This document shows, one piece after another, positions 16,853-21,249 of a stretch of 41,045 nt of DNA. Made by a program: the position numbers and the translations under genes. The stretch covers positions 8,743-49,787 of the forward strand of contig JADMJQ010000151.1 of NCBI GenBank assembly GCA_018780415.1, given 5' to 3'. The notes below the pieces were generated by a model, which was not told where the DNA came from, made no database searches, and saw only the letters and a list, made by a program, of their open reading frames with translations. Position 1 is the first letter of the stretch. Each line of letters begins with the position of its first letter. Source of the DNA: Roseateles sp. (lineage in GTDB: Bacteria; Pseudomonadota; Gammaproteobacteria; Burkholderiales; Burkholderiaceae_C).

Positions 16853-17629
16853 TCAGACCAGCGGCCGAGGCGGCGGGCGGCCATCGCCATAGAGGTCGGC
16901 GGTCCTTGCCATGGCCTTCACGTCCAGCATGAACAGCCGGCCGTCGGCAATCCGGTGCAGGCCGCGGCGCTCGAGCTTGCGCAGCGTCTTGTTGGTGTGC
17001 ACCAGGGACAGCCCCAGGCCATCGGCCACATGCTGCTGGGTCAGTGGAAACGGCACGCCGGCGGCGCCACCATCGGCCTGCAGCGCTGCGGCGCGCTTGA
17101 ACAGCAGGATCAGCAACATCGCAATCCGCTCCTCGGCGCTGCGCCGGCCCACCGACAGCAAGGTGTCGTCGACCAGCGATTCCTCGTGCGCCGTCAGCCA
17201 GGTGATATTGAAGCCCATGGTCGGCGAGCGGCGATGCAACTCCCACAACGAGTCGCGCTTGAAGACGCAGAACACCGCGTCGGTCAAGGTATCGACCCCA
17301 TGTGCCGCAGCGTCGGCCATTTTTTGCTGCACGCCGATGAAGTCACCGGCGAGCAAAAAGCTCAGGATTTGCCGGCGCCCGTCGCTCAGCGTCTTGTAAC
17401 GAAAGGCCCAGCCGCGCAGCAAGGTGTACAGCGGCGCGTCGGTCTGGCCCTCATGGATCAGCGTCTCCATGGCGCCGAGCCGCAGCTCACGCTGCTTCAA
17501 AGACTGCACCAGACTGTGCTCGTCGTCGGTGTGATTGATGAAGAGCGGCAGCCGGCGCAAGGGGCAATCGCCACATGCTGTCTCGCCGATGATCTCTGTG
17601 GGCCGAGTCTGAAGAGGGGGCGTAGGCAT
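16853..17629 (-). CDS. Crp/Fnr-family transcriptional regulator
   Basis: A 258-residue regulator with a cyclic-nucleotide-binding-like fold (LYTLLRGWAFRYKTLSDGRRQILSFLLAGDFIG) and a C-terminal HTH_Crp domain (PLTQQHVADGLGLSLVHTNKTLRKLERRGL). The N-terminus has CGDCPLRRLPLF, reminiscent of FNR. Only two N-terminal cysteines plus one in VFCVF are present, so the four ligands of the FNR iron-sulfur cluster are incomplete. Start ATG 17629 is chosen because this segment begins the recognisable family; the longer upstream frame is not homologous. It is divergent from the PQQ sugar dehydrogenase, with an inverted repeat in the shared 142-bp region, so control of that operon is plausible. The effector is unknown. 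Confidence 0.88.
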   Translation of the reverse strand: MPTPPLQTRPTEIIGETACGDCPLRRLPLFINHTDDEHSLVQSLKQRELRLGAMETLIHEGQTDAPLYTLLRGWAFRYKTLSDGRRQILSFLLAGDFIGVQQKMADAAAHGVDTLTDAVFCVFKRDSLWELHRRSPTMGFNITWLTAHEESLVDDTLLSVGRRSAEERIAMLLILLFKRAAALQADGGAAGVPFPLTQQHVADGLGLSLVHTNKTLRKLERRGLHRIADGRLFMLDVKAMARTADLYGDGRPPPRPLV

Positions 17630-17658
17630 CGGGCTAGGCGGCGTCAAAGTGGAGTAAA

Positions 17659-17694
17659 TGGGATTGGCGCCAGAGTATCCGTCAATCAATCCCA
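17659..17694. promoter_or_regulatory. Inverted repeat TGGGATTG/CAATCCCA in divergent promoter region
   Basis: Arms of 8 bp at 17659-17666 and 17687-17694 are separated by 20 bp, between the Crp/Fnr gene and the PQQ dehydrogenase gene. It is not a canonical CRP or FNR box. Recorded as a possible operator from its position only. Confidence 0.35.
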
Positions 17695-17771
17695 CCAGCC
17701 GGCACCATGCAATACTTGGCTCAGCGCCATGTCTGTTGGGCCCGTCCTCTTCCCCCGGAGCTGAATGACTT

Positions 17772-18857
17772 ATGAAGAACCTTCTTTGGCTGCTGTTGCC
17801 GGTTGCCGCACAGGCGCAAAGCCTGCAGACCGAAGTCGTTGCGCAGGGCTTGAACAGCCCCTGGGCATTTGCCGCCTTGGCCAACGGTGAATGGCTGGTC
17901 ACCGAGCGGCCCGGCAGCATGCGCAAGGTCGACGCCAAGGGGAAGATTGGCGCGCCGCTGCAGGGGCTGCCCAAGATCGACGCCGTCGGCCAAGGCGGCT
18001 TGTTGGACCTGGTGCTGGACAGCGGCTTCGCCAGCAACCGCCTGCTCTATTTCTGCTACGCCGAGGCTGGCACCGGCGGCAATGGCACGGCCTTGGCCAA
18101 GGCGCGCTTGAACGCCGAGGCCACGGCGCTTGAACAGGTGCAAGTGATCTTCAGGCAACAGCCCAAGATGACCGGGCGCAACCACTTCGGCTGTCGCATC
18201 GTTGAGGGCCGTGACGGCAATTTGTTCATGACCCTGGGTGAGCGCTTCAGCGGCATGCAGCGTGCGCAGCAACTCGACAACCATTTGGGCAAGATCGTGC
18301 GCATCACGAAGGACGGCAAGGCCCCGGCCGACAACCCATTCACCCAAACCGCCGGCGCCTTGCCCGAGATTTACAGCTATGGTCACCGCAACCCGCAGGG
18401 CCTGGTGCTGGATACGCAGGGCCAGCTTTGGGCCCATGAACATGGCCCCCAGGGTGGCGACGAGTTGAACCTGGTGCAAGCCGGCAAGAACTACGGCTGG
18501 CCGGTCATCACCTATGGCGAAAACTACGGCGGCGGCAAGATTGGCGACGGCCTCACGGCCAAGGACGGCCTGCTGCAGCCGATTCTGCATTGGACCCCGT
18601 CGATTGCGCCTTCGGGCCTGGCACAGCTGACCAGCAAGGCCTATGGCGATGCCTGGCAAGGCAGCTACTTTGTGGGCTCGCTGAAATTCCGCTACTTGGA
18701 GCGCGTGCAGCTCAAGGATGGCAAGGTGGTGGCCCAGCAGAAACTGCTTGAGGACATTGGCCGGCTGCGCGATGTGCGCCAAGGCCCGGATGGCCTGATC
18801 TATGTGCTGACCGAGAACGAGCCGGCGCAACTTTTGCGTCTGCGACCCGGCCCTTGA
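17772..18857 (+). CDS. yliI: PQQ-dependent aldose sugar dehydrogenase (YliI-like)
   Basis: A soluble periplasmic quinoprotein that oxidises aldose sugars to lactones with PQQ as cofactor. It has 361 residues: signal peptide MKNLLWLLLPVAAQAQ, then the six-bladed GSDH propeller. Family signatures are LNSPWAFAALANGEWLVTERPG, the catalytic-region GRNHFGCRIVEGRDG, SYGHRNPQGLVLD and HGPQGGDELNLVQAGKNYGWP, where PQQ and calcium ligands lie in the known enzymes. Length and motifs match E. coli YliI (Asd). GGAG (17757-17760) is 11 nt before the ATG. Its stop overlaps the TTG start of a PqqU-like receptor gene (TTGA, 18854-18857), so enzyme and receptor form one operon. No PQQ biosynthesis gene is seen in the window. 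Confidence 0.94.
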   Translation: MKNLLWLLLPVAAQAQSLQTEVVAQGLNSPWAFAALANGEWLVTERPGSMRKVDAKGKIGAPLQGLPKIDAVGQGGLLDLVLDSGFASNRLLYFCYAEAGTGGNGTALAKARLNAEATALEQVQVIFRQQPKMTGRNHFGCRIVEGRDGNLFMTLGERFSGMQRAQQLDNHLGKIVRITKDGKAPADNPFTQTAGALPEIYSYGHRNPQGLVLDTQGQLWAHEHGPQGGDELNLVQAGKNYGWPVITYGENYGGGKIGDGLTAKDGLLQPILHWTPSIAPSGLAQLTSKAYGDAWQGSYFVGSLKFRYLERVQLKDGKVVAQQKLLEDIGRLRDVRQGPDGLIYVLTENEPAQLLRLRPGP

Positions 18858-20752
18858 TTCCAGCGATCTTGCTGGCCGTCAGCAACGCCGCCCTGCCCCC
18901 GGTGCTGGTGCAAGGCCGCGCCGAGGGCTTGGCGGCCACGGTCATCACCGCCGAGCCGCTGCTGCAGGAGCGCCCTGTGGCCGACTGGCTGGCCGGCGCG
19001 CCCGGTGTGTTCGCGGCCGAGCGCGGCAACTATGCGCAGGACACCCAGCTCTCGATCCGCGGCTTCGGCGCGCGCAGCTCGTTCGGCGTGCGCGGCCTGC
19101 GGGTCTATGTCGACGGCATTCCCGCGACCATGCCGGACGGCAGCGGTTCGCTCAGCCATGTGCCACTGGCCAGCCTGGAGAGCATCGAGCTGTTGCGCGG
19201 CCCTTTCAGCGCGCTCTACGGCAGCAATAGCGGCGGGGTGCTGGTCTTTTCCACTCGCTCGGCAAACGGGCACGAGCCGCTGCGCCTGAGCGTACAGACG
19301 GGGTCCTTTGGCGAGCGGCTGCTGCGCGTTCAGTCGGGCCACCGGCTCGGCGACGCTGGCCTGCGTGTAGATGCCAGCACCTGGCAACAAACCGGTTGGC
19401 GGCCACAGGCTGCGGCGGAGCGGCAACTGCTGGATCTGCGCCTGGATCAGCAAGGACTGCGGCTGAGCTTCAATGCGCTGCGGCAAAGCGGCGATGACCC
19501 GCAAGGGCTCAGCCGGGCGCAGTGGGACGCGAAGCCCTTCAGCACCGCCCCACCAGCGCTGGCCTTCAACACCCGCAAGACCACCGATCAATGGCAGCTC
19601 GGTGCCGGCTGGAGTGGCGGTAATGCCTGGGCCGGCCAGCGCCAAGTGCGGCAGTGGCAGTCGATCCCGGCGGCGGTGCAGGCGCCAGCCAGTCATCCGG
19701 GCGGCGTCATTGAGCTCGCGCGCAACTTTGCCGGCCTGGACCTGCGCACCCACCGCATGCTCGGTACGGCCACGGCCGTGCTGGGCTTGGCCGTCGAAGG
19801 GCAATGGGATGAGCGCAAGGGTTTCGAGAACTTCATCGGCTCGCAGCTGGGTCTGACGGGCGCACTGCGCCGCGCCGAGAGAAACCGCGCGCTGGGCCTG
19901 GACCTGTATGCCCAGCTGCGCCAGCCGCTGAGTGCCGCCACCAGCTTGCAAGCGGGTCTGCGCGGCAGCCGGCTGCAGATGCGCAGCCAGGATCACTTCA
20001 CCGGCAATGGCGACGACAGCGGCAGTCGGTCGTTCGCGACACTGAGCCCGATGCTGGGCATCAGCCATCGGGTGGGATCGGGCTGGAGCCTCTATGCCAG
20101 CGCCGGCAGCGCCCATGAAACGCCGACCTTGAACGAACTCGCCTACCGCAGCGACGGCAGCTCCGGCTTCAATACCAGCCTGCAGGCGCAGCAAAGCCGC
20201 CAGATCGAGATCGGCGTGCGCGGCAATGGCCTGGAACTGAGTGCCTTCAGCGCCCGCAGCCGCGATGAAATCATCGCGCTGGGCAGCGTCGGCGGGCGCG
20301 CCCGCTTCGGCAATGCGGAGGGCATTCGCCGCAGCGGGGCCGAGCTGTCCTGGCAGCAAAGCATCAATGCCGCCTGGGATCTGCAATTGGCCCTCACCGC
20401 GCTGCACGCTCGCCTGAGTGACGGCACGGTGTTGCCGGGCGCGCCGGCGCAACAGGCTTTTGCGGCGCTGGGCTGGCAAGTCGATGGTTGGCGCGCCCAG
20501 GCGCGGCTGCAGGCGCAGAGCAAGCTGTGGGCCGACGCACGCAATGCCGCGCCCGGTTTTGGCCTGCTGCACCTGGCGCTGCAGCGCGAGGGTCACAACC
20601 CGGCCGGGCCTTGGCAGCTGCGCTTGGCGCTGGACAATCTGTTCGACAAACGCCATGCCGCCAGCGTGATCGTGGCCGAAGCCAATGGCCGCTTTCTGGA
20701 GCCCGGCGCGCCGCGTCGCTGGCAGCTGGGATTCAGCCAGAGTTTTTTGTGA
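18854..20752 (+). CDS. pqqU: TonB-dependent receptor, YncD/PqqU-like (probable PQQ importer)
   Basis: A 632-residue outer-membrane receptor. A short signal (MIPAILLAVSNAALP) leads into a plug domain and a 22-strand barrel ending in WQLGFSQSFL (terminal Phe/Leu). Several blocks match my recollection of E. coli YncD almost residue for residue: NYAQDTQLSIRGFGARS, LRVYVDGIPATMPDG, LRGPFSALYG, ETPTLNELAYRSDG, and DNLFDKRHAASVIV followed by ANGR. YncD was renamed PqqU after being shown to import PQQ. The start is TTG 18854, overlapping the TGA of the PQQ-dependent sugar dehydrogenase gene, with no Shine-Dalgarno, so translation depends on coupling. Context and sequence agree on PQQ uptake. An iron or cobalamin ligand is less likely. 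Confidence 0.88.
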   Translation: MIPAILLAVSNAALPPVLVQGRAEGLAATVITAEPLLQERPVADWLAGAPGVFAAERGNYAQDTQLSIRGFGARSSFGVRGLRVYVDGIPATMPDGSGSLSHVPLASLESIELLRGPFSALYGSNSGGVLVFSTRSANGHEPLRLSVQTGSFGERLLRVQSGHRLGDAGLRVDASTWQQTGWRPQAAAERQLLDLRLDQQGLRLSFNALRQSGDDPQGLSRAQWDAKPFSTAPPALAFNTRKTTDQWQLGAGWSGGNAWAGQRQVRQWQSIPAAVQAPASHPGGVIELARNFAGLDLRTHRMLGTATAVLGLAVEGQWDERKGFENFIGSQLGLTGALRRAERNRALGLDLYAQLRQPLSAATSLQAGLRGSRLQMRSQDHFTGNGDDSGSRSFATLSPMLGISHRVGSGWSLYASAGSAHETPTLNELAYRSDGSSGFNTSLQAQQSRQIEIGVRGNGLELSAFSARSRDEIIALGSVGGRARFGNAEGIRRSGAELSWQQSINAAWDLQLALTALHARLSDGTVLPGAPAQQAFAALGWQVDGWRAQARLQAQSKLWADARNAAPGFGLLHLALQREGHNPAGPWQLRLALDNLFDKRHAASVIVAEANGRFLEPGAPRRWQLGFSQSFL

Positions 20753-20840
20753 CATCGGCCTGGCTACGCAACAGTCCCCAGGGCGCTGAGCAACTAGGCA
20801 AACAAACGGGCCGCTGAAGCTCACCGGCCACCCGCCTCAC

Positions 20841-20870
20841 CCCCTCGCCCTTTGGGGGGAGGGAGGTCCC
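20841..20870. terminator. Possible terminator hairpin after the receptor gene
   Basis: A CCCTC/GAGGG stem continues with CCC/GGG around a TTTG loop, about 90 bp past the receptor stop. No T-run follows, so intrinsic termination is doubtful. The rest of 20753-21012 shows nothing I can name beyond the ribosome-binding site of the next gene. Confidence 0.3.
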
Positions 20871-21012
20871 CAGCGCCCCCCCATCGCACCACCCGGGTTC
20901 CGCCTTCAGTTGGATGGGAACTCAGGCCCGCAGCGCCGAATATTGCTGCACTGCACAGGCAGCCCCGCCCTCTTTCCCCAAACACCCAAACAACGCGCAA
21001 ACGGAGTCCAAA

Positions 21013-21249
21013 ATGCAAGTCCAGGTCGCCACCCTCGCCGCCATCAGCCCAGTCGCTCAAAGCCAGTCAGGCCTGGCTAGCCTGGAGTTTTTGAGCCCCG
21101 AACCGGTGCGCGGCGGCTGCGGCTACTTTGACTCCAGCTTCGAACTCAGCCAAGGCCTGAGCGTCACGGAAGAGCTGGACCCCACACTGCTGCAGCTTTG
21201 GGCGCGGGTGCTGGGCGGCGCCGTGCCAATGACGACGATGCTGCACTGA
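21013..21249 (+). CDS. Small hypothetical protein, 78 aa, overlapping PAP2 gene antisense
   Basis: I do not recognise this family. ATG 21013 has a good ribosome-binding site (GGAG about 7 nt upstream). The product is soluble, has no signal peptide, and contains SGLASLEFLSPEP, then GGCGYFDSSFELSQGL, then VTEELDPTLLQLWARVL. The ordered, non-repetitive sequence and acidic patch look like a genuine small protein. Its last 86 bp lie opposite the 3' end of the PAP2 phosphatase gene. A function cannot be assigned; it could be a small regulator or binding partner. Conservation in relatives would settle whether it is real. Confidence 0.55.
   Translation: MQVQVATLAAISPVAQSQSGLASLEFLSPEPVRGGCGYFDSSFELSQGLSVTEELDPTLLQLWARVLGGAVPMTTMLH

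What the first reader, a model, noticed from the sequence alone, without database searches (positions are those of the whole stretch)
17772..20752. Operon coupling a PQQ sugar dehydrogenase to a PqqU-like PQQ receptor
The first gene is a YliI-like quinoprotein. The second, fused to it by a 4-base TTGA overlap, carries long blocks nearly identical to E. coli YncD (NYAQDTQLSIRGFG, VDGIPATMPDG, LRGPFSALYG, ETPTLNELAYR). YncD/PqqU is the known outer-membrane PQQ importer. Enzyme and cofactor importer are thus made together, and no PQQ biosynthesis gene is in the window: a likely PQQ-scavenging cassette under a divergent Crp/Fnr regulator. In E. coli, as I recall, the two genes are far apart, so this linkage independently supports both assignments.
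Basis: partly seen in the sequence, partly recalled or inferred. Interest (0 to 1): 0.8.

Follow-up and report, generated by a model that had tools for sequence, protein, structure and literature searches.

The report
PQQ enzyme and importer, one operon
Two overlapping genes in a beta-proteobacterium appear to make a sugar-oxidising enzyme that needs the cofactor PQQ together with the outer-membrane pump that collects PQQ from outside, in a genome where the PQQ-making genes searched for were not found; each part is of a known kind, and the tight pairing recurs in two related genera.

Summary
17772-18857 encodes a YliI-type quinoprotein (GSDH family); 18854-20752, overlapping it by TTGA, a TonB-dependent receptor. 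The receptor lies inside the PqqU clade (SH-aLRT 99), keeps the published PqqU signature (F77, R263, R321 for Y99, R304, R365) and 9 of 11 checked PQQ contacts; its model fits PqqU-PQQ 9c4o (TM 0.92). In the genome (93% complete) no pqqC, no pqqE over cut-off and no PF01011 quinoprotein was found, and one GSDH gene: this one. The pair recurs: the four receptors nearest in the tree (two other genera) all have the same enzyme directly upstream, three with the same TTGA; both gene trees recover the same five members. GSDH hits flank 8 of 27 PqqU rows but 0 of 123 other receptor rows, although only 2 of those 8 are YliI-type. PQQ scavenging through PqqU is published; I found no paper describing this enzyme-importer operon. 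The oddest detail is a 12-14-residue receptor leader without a basic residue, seen in all five operons. PQQ transport is inferred, not shown.

The parts
17772..18857 (+). YliI-type quinoprotein aldose sugar dehydrogenase (GSDH family, 361 aa, leader MKNLLWLLLPVAAQAQ judged Sec-like by eye)
   Evidence: PF07995 435.7 bits; 7cdy/2g8s best solved relatives; Q74, H138, R206, N207, K305, R331, R333 shared with E. coli YliI
18854..18857 (+). TTGA overlap: TTG start of the receptor on the TGA stop of the enzyme (translational coupling inferred)
   Evidence: same overlap in L229, L242 and L243
18854..20752 (+). PqqU-type TonB-dependent receptor (632 aa)
   Evidence: NF041535 460.7 bits, below its 1200-bit equivalog cut-off; inside the PqqU clade; model pLDDT 91, closest solved fold 9c4o, TM 0.92
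18854..18892 (+). short receptor leader (MIPAILLAVSNAA), no basic residue; start codon TTG
   Evidence: parallel leaders in L229, L230, L242, L243
18893..18919 (+). TonB-box-like stretch LPPVLVQGR directly after the leader
   Evidence: sequence; LPPVVVTGG and similar in sister operons; the assignment as TonB box is recalled knowledge
19082..19084 (+). F77 = E. coli PqqU Y99 (stacks on PQQ; F accepted in the published signature)
19640..19642 (+). R263 = E. coli PqqU R304 (PQQ carboxylate)
19814..19816 (+). R321 = E. coli PqqU R365 (PQQ carboxylate)
20297..20299 (+). R482 = E. coli PqqU R536
16853..17629 (-). divergent Crp/Fnr-type regulator, 258 aa; a neighbour, not shown to belong to the unit
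   Evidence: PF00027 and PF13545; no relative found in the stretches around the four sister operons

Best explanation
A two-gene PQQ-salvage operon. The first gene makes a periplasmic PQQ-dependent aldose sugar dehydrogenase of the YliI type. The second, started on the enzyme's own stop codon and so probably translated by ribosomes that have just finished the enzyme, makes a PqqU-type TonB-dependent importer that captures PQQ at low concentration and delivers it to the periplasm, where the apo-enzyme binds it with Ca2+ and passes electrons on. The genome shows neither of the two PQQ synthesis genes that could be searched for, and no other PQQ enzyme of the two families searched, so importer and enzyme form a supply-and-use unit. 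Shown: gene anatomy, family placement, contact residues, recurrence of the pair, absence of the searched genes from the assembly. Inferred: PQQ transport, PQQ use, translational coupling, export of the receptor. Unknown: electron acceptor and physiological sugar.
For: Receptor: 9 of 11 checked PQQ-contact positions identical to E. coli, plus F for Y99 and S for Q121; PqqU-like rows on one side of a branch against 10 other receptors, support 99; 9c4o first with TM 0.92, against 0.66-0.81 for the non-PqqU receptors in the 50 listed rows. Enzyme: active-site positions shared with E. coli YliI. Genome: 0 pqqC while 6 of 10 searched genomes ring; best pqqE hit 69.6 bits against a cut-off of 381.35, with 6 of 59 genomes over it; 0 PF01011 while 9 of 10 ring; 1 PF07995. 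Linkage: GSDH within 2 kb of 8 of 27 PqqU rows and 0 of 123 other receptor rows, Fisher p 4e-7. The same enzyme directly upstream in four genomes of two other genera, with the same five members grouped in both gene trees (GSDH 97/100, PqqU 99). NG86 omega 0.27 and 0.36 (pqqU) and 0.20 and 0.22 (GSDH) in the two closest pairs.
Against: The receptor scores below the NCBIfam PqqU equivalog cut-off (460.7 of 1200); none of 59 genomes reached it either, one control (E. coli) did. Q121 is S. The receptor has a long branch; NG86 omega between window and sister receptors is 0.59-0.60 at dS 0.8-0.9. Its short uncharged leader is not shown to be exported. Of 25 YliI-scale GSDH rows (over 350 bits) only 2 (G000, G049) lie next to pqqU; the other six of the eight linked rows are weak, sorbosone-type hits. 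Most pqqU loci examined have no quinoprotein of the searched kinds on the same strand within 2 kb (47 of 60, 68 of 80, 44 of 60). Within the four sisters the branching order differs between the two gene trees. The genome is 93.27% complete; pqqB, D, F were not searched and the pqqA search was uninformative.
Confidence: 0.86

Rival explanations
1. The receptor is a PqqU relative that imports something else tied to the enzyme, for example its sugar substrate, its acid product, or a metal complex.
For: TonB-dependent transporters vary in ligand (general knowledge); receptor identity to E. coli PqqU is only 39%, with a long branch and Q121 changed.
Against: All residues of the published PqqU signature and 9 of 11 contact positions are kept. 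Seven of these positions are invariant across 41 aligned PqqU-like proteins, the window's included, and the eighth, F77, is nearly invariant. Elsewhere the partner is one of several different PQQ enzyme families (GSDH, sorbosone-type, Gcd-type, PQQ alcohol dehydrogenase), whose common factor is PQQ rather than the substrate.
Confidence: 0.08
2. The adjacency is incidental: two unrelated genes in a gene-dense stretch.
For: Flanking genes are unrelated (S10 peptidase, PAP2, PPK2); in E. coli the two genes are far apart; 23 of 25 YliI-scale GSDH rows are not next to pqqU.
Against: Same pair and order in two other genera, three of four with the same overlap, and with different flanks where tested; same five members grouped in both gene trees; 8 of 27 against 0 of 123 control; further pairings in L083 (same order, gap 27) and L061 (reverse order, gap 3), whose receptors lie in the other main PqqU branch.
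Confidence: 0.02
3. The unit is controlled by the divergent Crp/Fnr-type protein.
For: Divergent arrangement with 142 bases between; an 84% identical regulator in G022 is divergent from a GSDH-like gene of the sorbosone type.
Against: No relative of the regulator in the fetched stretches around the four sister operons; over all pqqU loci scanned only weak Crp-like hits in L052, L136 and L283. No FNR-like site between the genes; the N terminus has CGDC but no further cysteine nearby (sequence).
Confidence: 0.2
4. The organism does make PQQ, its cluster lying in the unassembled part; the receptor only recaptures leaked PQQ.
For: The assembly is 93.27% complete in 356 contigs. One same-genus relative (G009) has PqqU together with pqqC and pqqE.
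Against: No pqqC and no pqqE over cut-off in G000; no pqqC hit in 3 of 4 other same-genus genomes tested.
Confidence: 0.07

Closest known systems
PqqU (formerly YncD), E. coli TonB-dependent PQQ importer (Munder et al. 2025, PMC12124388; text parts 1-4 of 8 and passages read)
   Same: Predicted fold, PQQ-contact residues, published signature, presence without the PQQ synthesis genes searched
   Different: 39% identity, shorter (632 against 700 aa), short leader with TTG start, in one operon with a quinoprotein; in E. coli K-12 pqqU lies next to yncE with no quinoprotein dehydrogenase annotated in the 10 kb shown
YliI / Asd, E. coli soluble aldose sugar dehydrogenase (2g8s)
   Same: PF07995 domain, PQQ-site positions, leader
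   Different: In E. coli unlinked to pqqU; in the window's genome it is the only GSDH hit and no PF01011 enzyme was found, whereas E. coli rings for both families
PqqU placed beside PQQ biosynthesis genes (four Burkholderiales genomes, reported in PMC12124388)
   Same: pqqU linked to PQQ genes in Burkholderiales
   Different: There linked to cofactor synthesis, here to the cofactor's user; by coordinates the synthesis type is also seen in G050
pqqU linked to other quinoproteins in relatives (sorbosone-type GSDH with cytochrome c; PQQ alcohol dehydrogenases; Gcd-type)
   Same: Importer next to a PQQ enzyme
   Different: Other enzyme families, mostly wider spacing, several with a cytochrome c gene or domain

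Membership tests
PqqU (sense of Munder et al. 2025) | Aromatic residue at Y99 plus R304 and R365 | tested here: met
   F77, R263, R321
PqqU (sense of Munder et al. 2025) | Placement inside the PqqU clade against other TonB-dependent receptors | tested here: met
   SH-aLRT 99 against 10 outgroup receptors; the tool warns of long outgroup branches
PqqU (sense of Munder et al. 2025) | Barrel-and-plug fold matching the PQQ-bound structure | tested here: met
   model pLDDT 91, 9c4o first with TM 0.92; strands were not counted
PqqU (sense of Munder et al. 2025) | High-affinity PQQ binding and TonB-dependent uptake | not testable with these tools
   needs the bench
NCBIfam NF041535 PqqU equivalog | Score at or above the curated cut-off of 1200 bits | tested here: not met
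   460.7 bits; 0 of 59 genomes met it. I therefore do not file it under this equivalog
GSDH / aldose sugar dehydrogenase (PF07995) | Pfam gathering score | tested here: met
   435.7 against 25
GSDH / aldose sugar dehydrogenase (PF07995) | Catalytic His and PQQ-binding Arg, Lys, Asn positions of the bacterial enzymes | tested here: met
   H138, R206, N207, K305, R331, R333 aligned with E. coli YliI; sGDH residue numbers partly from PMC6881789 passages, the equation of motifs recalled
GSDH / aldose sugar dehydrogenase (PF07995) | PQQ-dependent sugar oxidation | not testable with these tools
   needs the bench
TIGR03606 soluble glucose/sorbosone PQQ dehydrogenase | Curated cut-off 434.55 bits | tested here: not met
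   127.1 bits; not filed there
PQQ scavenger (importer and quinoprotein without synthesis) | No PQQ biosynthesis genes in the genome | tested here: inconclusive
   no pqqC and no pqqE over cut-off, with other genomes ringing; pqqA search uninformative; pqqB, D, F not searched; genome 93% complete

The most novel reading that the evidence does not exclude
This is a heritable one-enzyme, one-importer salvage unit: a PqqU subfamily that has become the translationally coupled partner of a YliI-type dehydrogenase, sits in different genomic contexts as a two-gene block, and in the window's genome serves the only PQQ-dependent enzyme. Its receptor is exported by an unusually short leader without a basic n-region, so import capacity is set by synthesis of the apo-enzyme rather than by a separate regulator.
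Probability: 0.4. Interest if true: 0.55.

Novelty: new member of a known kind. Interest (0 to 1): 0.42.

Why it matters
It gives independent genetic support that YliI-type enzymes can work with scavenged PQQ, and that PqqU relatives far from enterobacteria are still PQQ importers. It also suggests that the published genome survey of PqqU can be extended by gene neighbourhood: pqqU sits beside GSDH, sorbosone-type, Gcd-type or alcohol quinoproteins in a sizeable minority of the loci examined. Because no other PQQ enzyme of the two families searched was found in the window's genome, deletion of either gene there should show what a YliI-type enzyme is for (its physiological role is, as I recall, unsettled).

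Tried and rejected
The pqqA (PF08042) and first pqqC searches rang in no control genome; pqqC was repeated with genomes known to have pqqE and then rang in 6 of 10. pqqA cannot be judged. An FNR-like box (TTGAT-N4-ATCAA, up to 2 mismatches) was sought between regulator and enzyme: none of 18 window matches lies there. The consensus scan showed no promoter-like site upstream of the enzyme within 17500-21050. A plasmid search with the receptor gave 999 records, all below 60% identity. My pqqE seed in the neighbourhood script was taken from an open frame I did not verify, so its pqqE hits are not used.

Considered and rejected: chance adjacency, a siderophore receptor, and filing under the NCBIfam equivalog (cut-off not met). 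The quick tree put the window next to L055, L056, L098 and L176; with 19 of the 60 set C receptors added, its sisters are L229, L230, L242 and L243. Counts for sets A, B and C are not added together: some genomes stand in more than one set, and set C was picked from the listed rows, mostly one per genus. Dropped rows: L062 (G057, fragments under my 200-bit limit) from set A; one class hit (G096) and one further g369 genome (G661, 48%) were not fetched; loci cut by contig ends were counted as they are; position N447 of the paper was not counted, because E. coli has W there and N at 477. Loci L188-L190 were fetched and not analysed.
Full report
WHAT IS THERE. Window 17772-18857 (+) is an ATG-started 361-aa open frame with a full GSDH domain (435.7 bits against a cut-off of 25). 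Window 18854-20752 (+) is a TTG-started 632-aa frame with plug and barrel of a TonB-dependent receptor. The receptor's start codon lies on the enzyme's stop codon (CC-TTGA-TTC). The nearest solved enzymes are 7cdy and E. coli YliI 2g8s; the nearest solved receptors are the two E. coli PqqU entries, 9c4o (with PQQ) and 6v81.

THE RECEPTOR. Munder et al. 2025 (PMC12124388; I read parts 1-4 of 8 of the text and search passages) use an aromatic residue at Y99 plus R304 and R365 as the signature of PqqU. On an alignment with E. coli PqqU the window has F77, R263 and R321 there. Of 11 PQQ-contact positions checked, 9 are identical (Q62, K242, R263, Q267, Q269, R321, N427, Y431, R482), one is conservative (F77) and one differs (S99 for Q121). 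58 of the 61 PqqU-like proteins in that alignment, E. coli and the window included, carry the signature; L070, L074 and L081 do not. (The paper also prints N447 in one place; in E. coli position 447 is W and 477 is N, so I used 477.) In a tree of 98 rows the 88 PqqU-like proteins are one side of a branch against 10 other receptors (SH-aLRT 99); the tool warns that two outgroup branches are long. An AlphaFold2 model from 41 aligned sequences has mean pLDDT 91 and pTM 0.89, with residues 1-21 poorly defined; Foldseek ranks 9c4o first (TM 0.92), then 6v81 (0.91), and other receptors at 0.66-0.81 in the 50 listed rows. It does not reach the NCBIfam PqqU equivalog cut-off (460.7 of 1200 bits); 0 of 59 genomes did, and one control genome did, which one search shows to be E. 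coli.

THE ENZYME. Aligned with E. coli YliI it keeps Q74, H138, R206-N207, K305, R331 and R333. PMC6881789 (passages) names His144, Lys377 and Arg408 of the Acinetobacter enzyme, and arginines equivalent to its own Arg430 and Arg621, as catalytic or PQQ-binding; equating those with the window residues rests on motif positions that I recalled. The leader MKNLLWLLLPVAAQAQ looks like a Sec signal (by eye), which would place the enzyme in the compartment to which PqqU delivers PQQ.

THE GENOME. The window lies in a 5.43-Mb, 356-contig genome, 93.27% complete. It has one GSDH hit, the window gene; no PF01011 quinoprotein, while 9 of 10 genomes in that search have them; no pqqC, while 6 of 10 ring; and a best pqqE hit of 69.6 bits against a 381.35-bit cut-off, while 6 of 59 genomes pass it. 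The pqqA search is uninformative; pqqB, pqqD and pqqF were not searched.

IS THE LINKAGE REAL? Three tests. First, over the same 59 genomes, GSDH hits lie within 2 kb of 8 of 27 PqqU rows and of 0 of 123 other receptor rows (Fisher p 4e-7). The receptor listing was cut at 150 rows, some of the 123 are two pieces of one gene, and several of the 8 come from one genus, so the p-value overstates independence. Only 2 of the 8 (G000, G049) are YliI-scale hits; the other six are weak, sorbosone-type GSDH hits. Seen from the enzyme, only 2 of the 25 GSDH rows over 350 bits lie beside pqqU. Second, quinoprotein-like genes of any of three seeded kinds (at least 60 bits and over 700 bases) lie on the same strand within 2 kb of pqqU in 13 of 60 loci of set A (relatives and class, window included), 12 of 80 loci of set B (best hits in GTDB contigs) and 16 of 60 loci of set C (family, mostly one per genus). 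The partners include YliI-type, sorbosone-type with cytochrome c, Gcd-type and alcohol dehydrogenases; Pfam was run on part of them. Third, a scan of 399 family genomes found PqqU-like hits in 224. Its closest receptors by identity (49-51%) include G428 and G704 (one genus) and G482 and G584 (another). All four (L229, L230, L242, L243) have a YliI-type enzyme directly upstream on the same strand. In L229, L242 and L243 a TTG start overlaps the enzyme's stop by exactly TTGA; in L230 a GTG start lies 10 bases further on. In L229, L230 and L242 the receptor frame is also open further upstream with other possible starts, so the TTG or GTG start is the shared, not the only, candidate. The tree of the enzymes (29 rows) and the tree of the receptors (56 rows) both group the window with these four (97/100 and 99). 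Inside the four the order differs: the enzyme tree puts L230 with L242 and L243, the receptor tree puts L230 with L229. Flanks differ where tested (DUF1501 and PhoX in L229; an AMP-binding enzyme in L242; a PAS kinase in L243; two frames in L230 without a family). NG86 omega is 0.27 and 0.36 for the receptor and 0.20 and 0.22 for the enzyme in the two closest pairs, 0.37 for both between L229 and L242, and 0.59-0.60 (receptor) and 0.32-0.36 (enzyme) between the window and the sisters; several YN00 runs failed. Further pairings of a YliI-type enzyme with pqqU occur in L083 (same order, gap 27) and L061 (reverse order, gap 3); their receptors sit in the other main PqqU branch.

HOW IT MOST LIKELY WORKS. 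Ribosomes finishing the dehydrogenase restart on the overlapping TTG and make the importer. The importer takes PQQ from outside with TonB energy; the periplasmic enzyme binds it and oxidises an aldose. The first step is inferred from the overlap (TTGCGTCTGCGACCCGGCCC precedes the TTG, without an obvious ribosome site). Transport is inferred from residues, fold and context. The sugar and the electron acceptor are unknown; the immediate neighbours tested are not cytochromes.

THE REGULATOR. The divergent gene 16853-17629 is a Crp/Fnr-type protein. 2 of 38 other genomes have a match at E 1e-20, one of them (G022) 84% identical and divergent from a GSDH-like gene of the sorbosone type. No relative of it was found in the stretches around the four sister operons; over all pqqU loci scanned there are weak hits in L052, L136 and L283. 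No FNR-like box lies in the intergenic stretch. Control by this protein is possible but unsupported.

KNOWN AND NEW. PQQ scavenging by PqqU in bacteria without PQQ synthesis is published, as is synteny of pqqU with the biosynthesis operon in four Burkholderiales. I found no paper that describes pqqU in an operon with a quinoprotein: searches 'PqqU + pyrroloquinoline quinone + TonB-dependent' (1 paper), 'yncD + PQQ + quinoprotein' (1), 'yliI / aldose sugar dehydrogenase / PQQ', two of three (24, 20 listed), 'PQQ-dependent sugar dehydrogenase + TonB-dependent receptor' (0), 'PQQ + TonB-dependent + quinoprotein + gene cluster' (24, 15 listed), 'PqqU' alone (5), and (6; 3). Beyond PMC12124388 I read passages of PMC6881789, PMC13088180, PMC12997753 and PMC11658791 only; the rest I saw as listings. 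The library lacks most subscription papers; Hantke and Friz 2022 I saw only as a reference. The proteins are therefore new members of known families in an arrangement that these searches did not find described.

THE ODD DETAIL. The receptor leader is MIPAILLAVSNAA, followed at once by LPPVLVQGR. The sister operons read MIEVLLLTTAGA-LPPVVVTGG (L229), MIASLLLATAVE-LPAVTVSGG (L242), MIATLLLAPAVA-LPPVQISGG (L243) and MIGALLLAAAEATA-LPPVIVTGG (L230) (start codons read as M). All are 12-14 residues and lack a basic residue; the other receptors in alignment A1, read from their first start, have longer ones. In the window's frame there is no other ATG, GTG or TTG between the preceding stop and this TTG. 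Whether such a leader is exported normally is open.

Noticed in passing
window 18854-18892; L229, L230, L242, L243: Receptor leader of 12-14 residues without any basic residue, in five operons of three genera.
   Followed up: partly
window 21013-21249 (+): 78-aa open frame about 260 bases downstream of the receptor, no Pfam family.
   Followed up: no
window 16853-17629 (-): Crp/Fnr-type regulator with CGDC near its N terminus but no further cysteine nearby; an 84% identical protein in G022 (L187, 8421-9200) is divergent from a GSDH-like gene.
   Followed up: partly
L037, L038, L039, L041: In same-genus relatives pqqU lies in a cluster with cytochrome c, a family-3 solute-binding protein, cytochrome b561 and a beta-propeller protein (TIGR03866-like in L041), with a sigma-54 activator nearby; families were checked in L041 only.
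   Followed up: partly
L100, L110, L129, L135, L143: A second TonB-dependent receptor (178-192 bits to my PqqU profile) stands near pqqU, in four of the five with a Gcd/alcohol-dehydrogenase-type hit within 6 kb; could be a lanthanide or other receptor.
   Followed up: no
genome G017 (C220, C21, C351): Three PqqU-like genes in one genome, one of them (C351) beside a sorbosone-type GSDH.
   Followed up: no
L047 (G050): By coordinates pqqU lies beside pqqE and pqqC on the same strand, like the published synteny with PQQ biosynthesis.
   Followed up: no
L133, L147, L153, L170: Gcd-like quinoproteins (502-1129 bits to E. coli Gcd) directly next to pqqU on the same strand, for example in Erwinia typographi (gap 60 bases).
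   Followed up: partly
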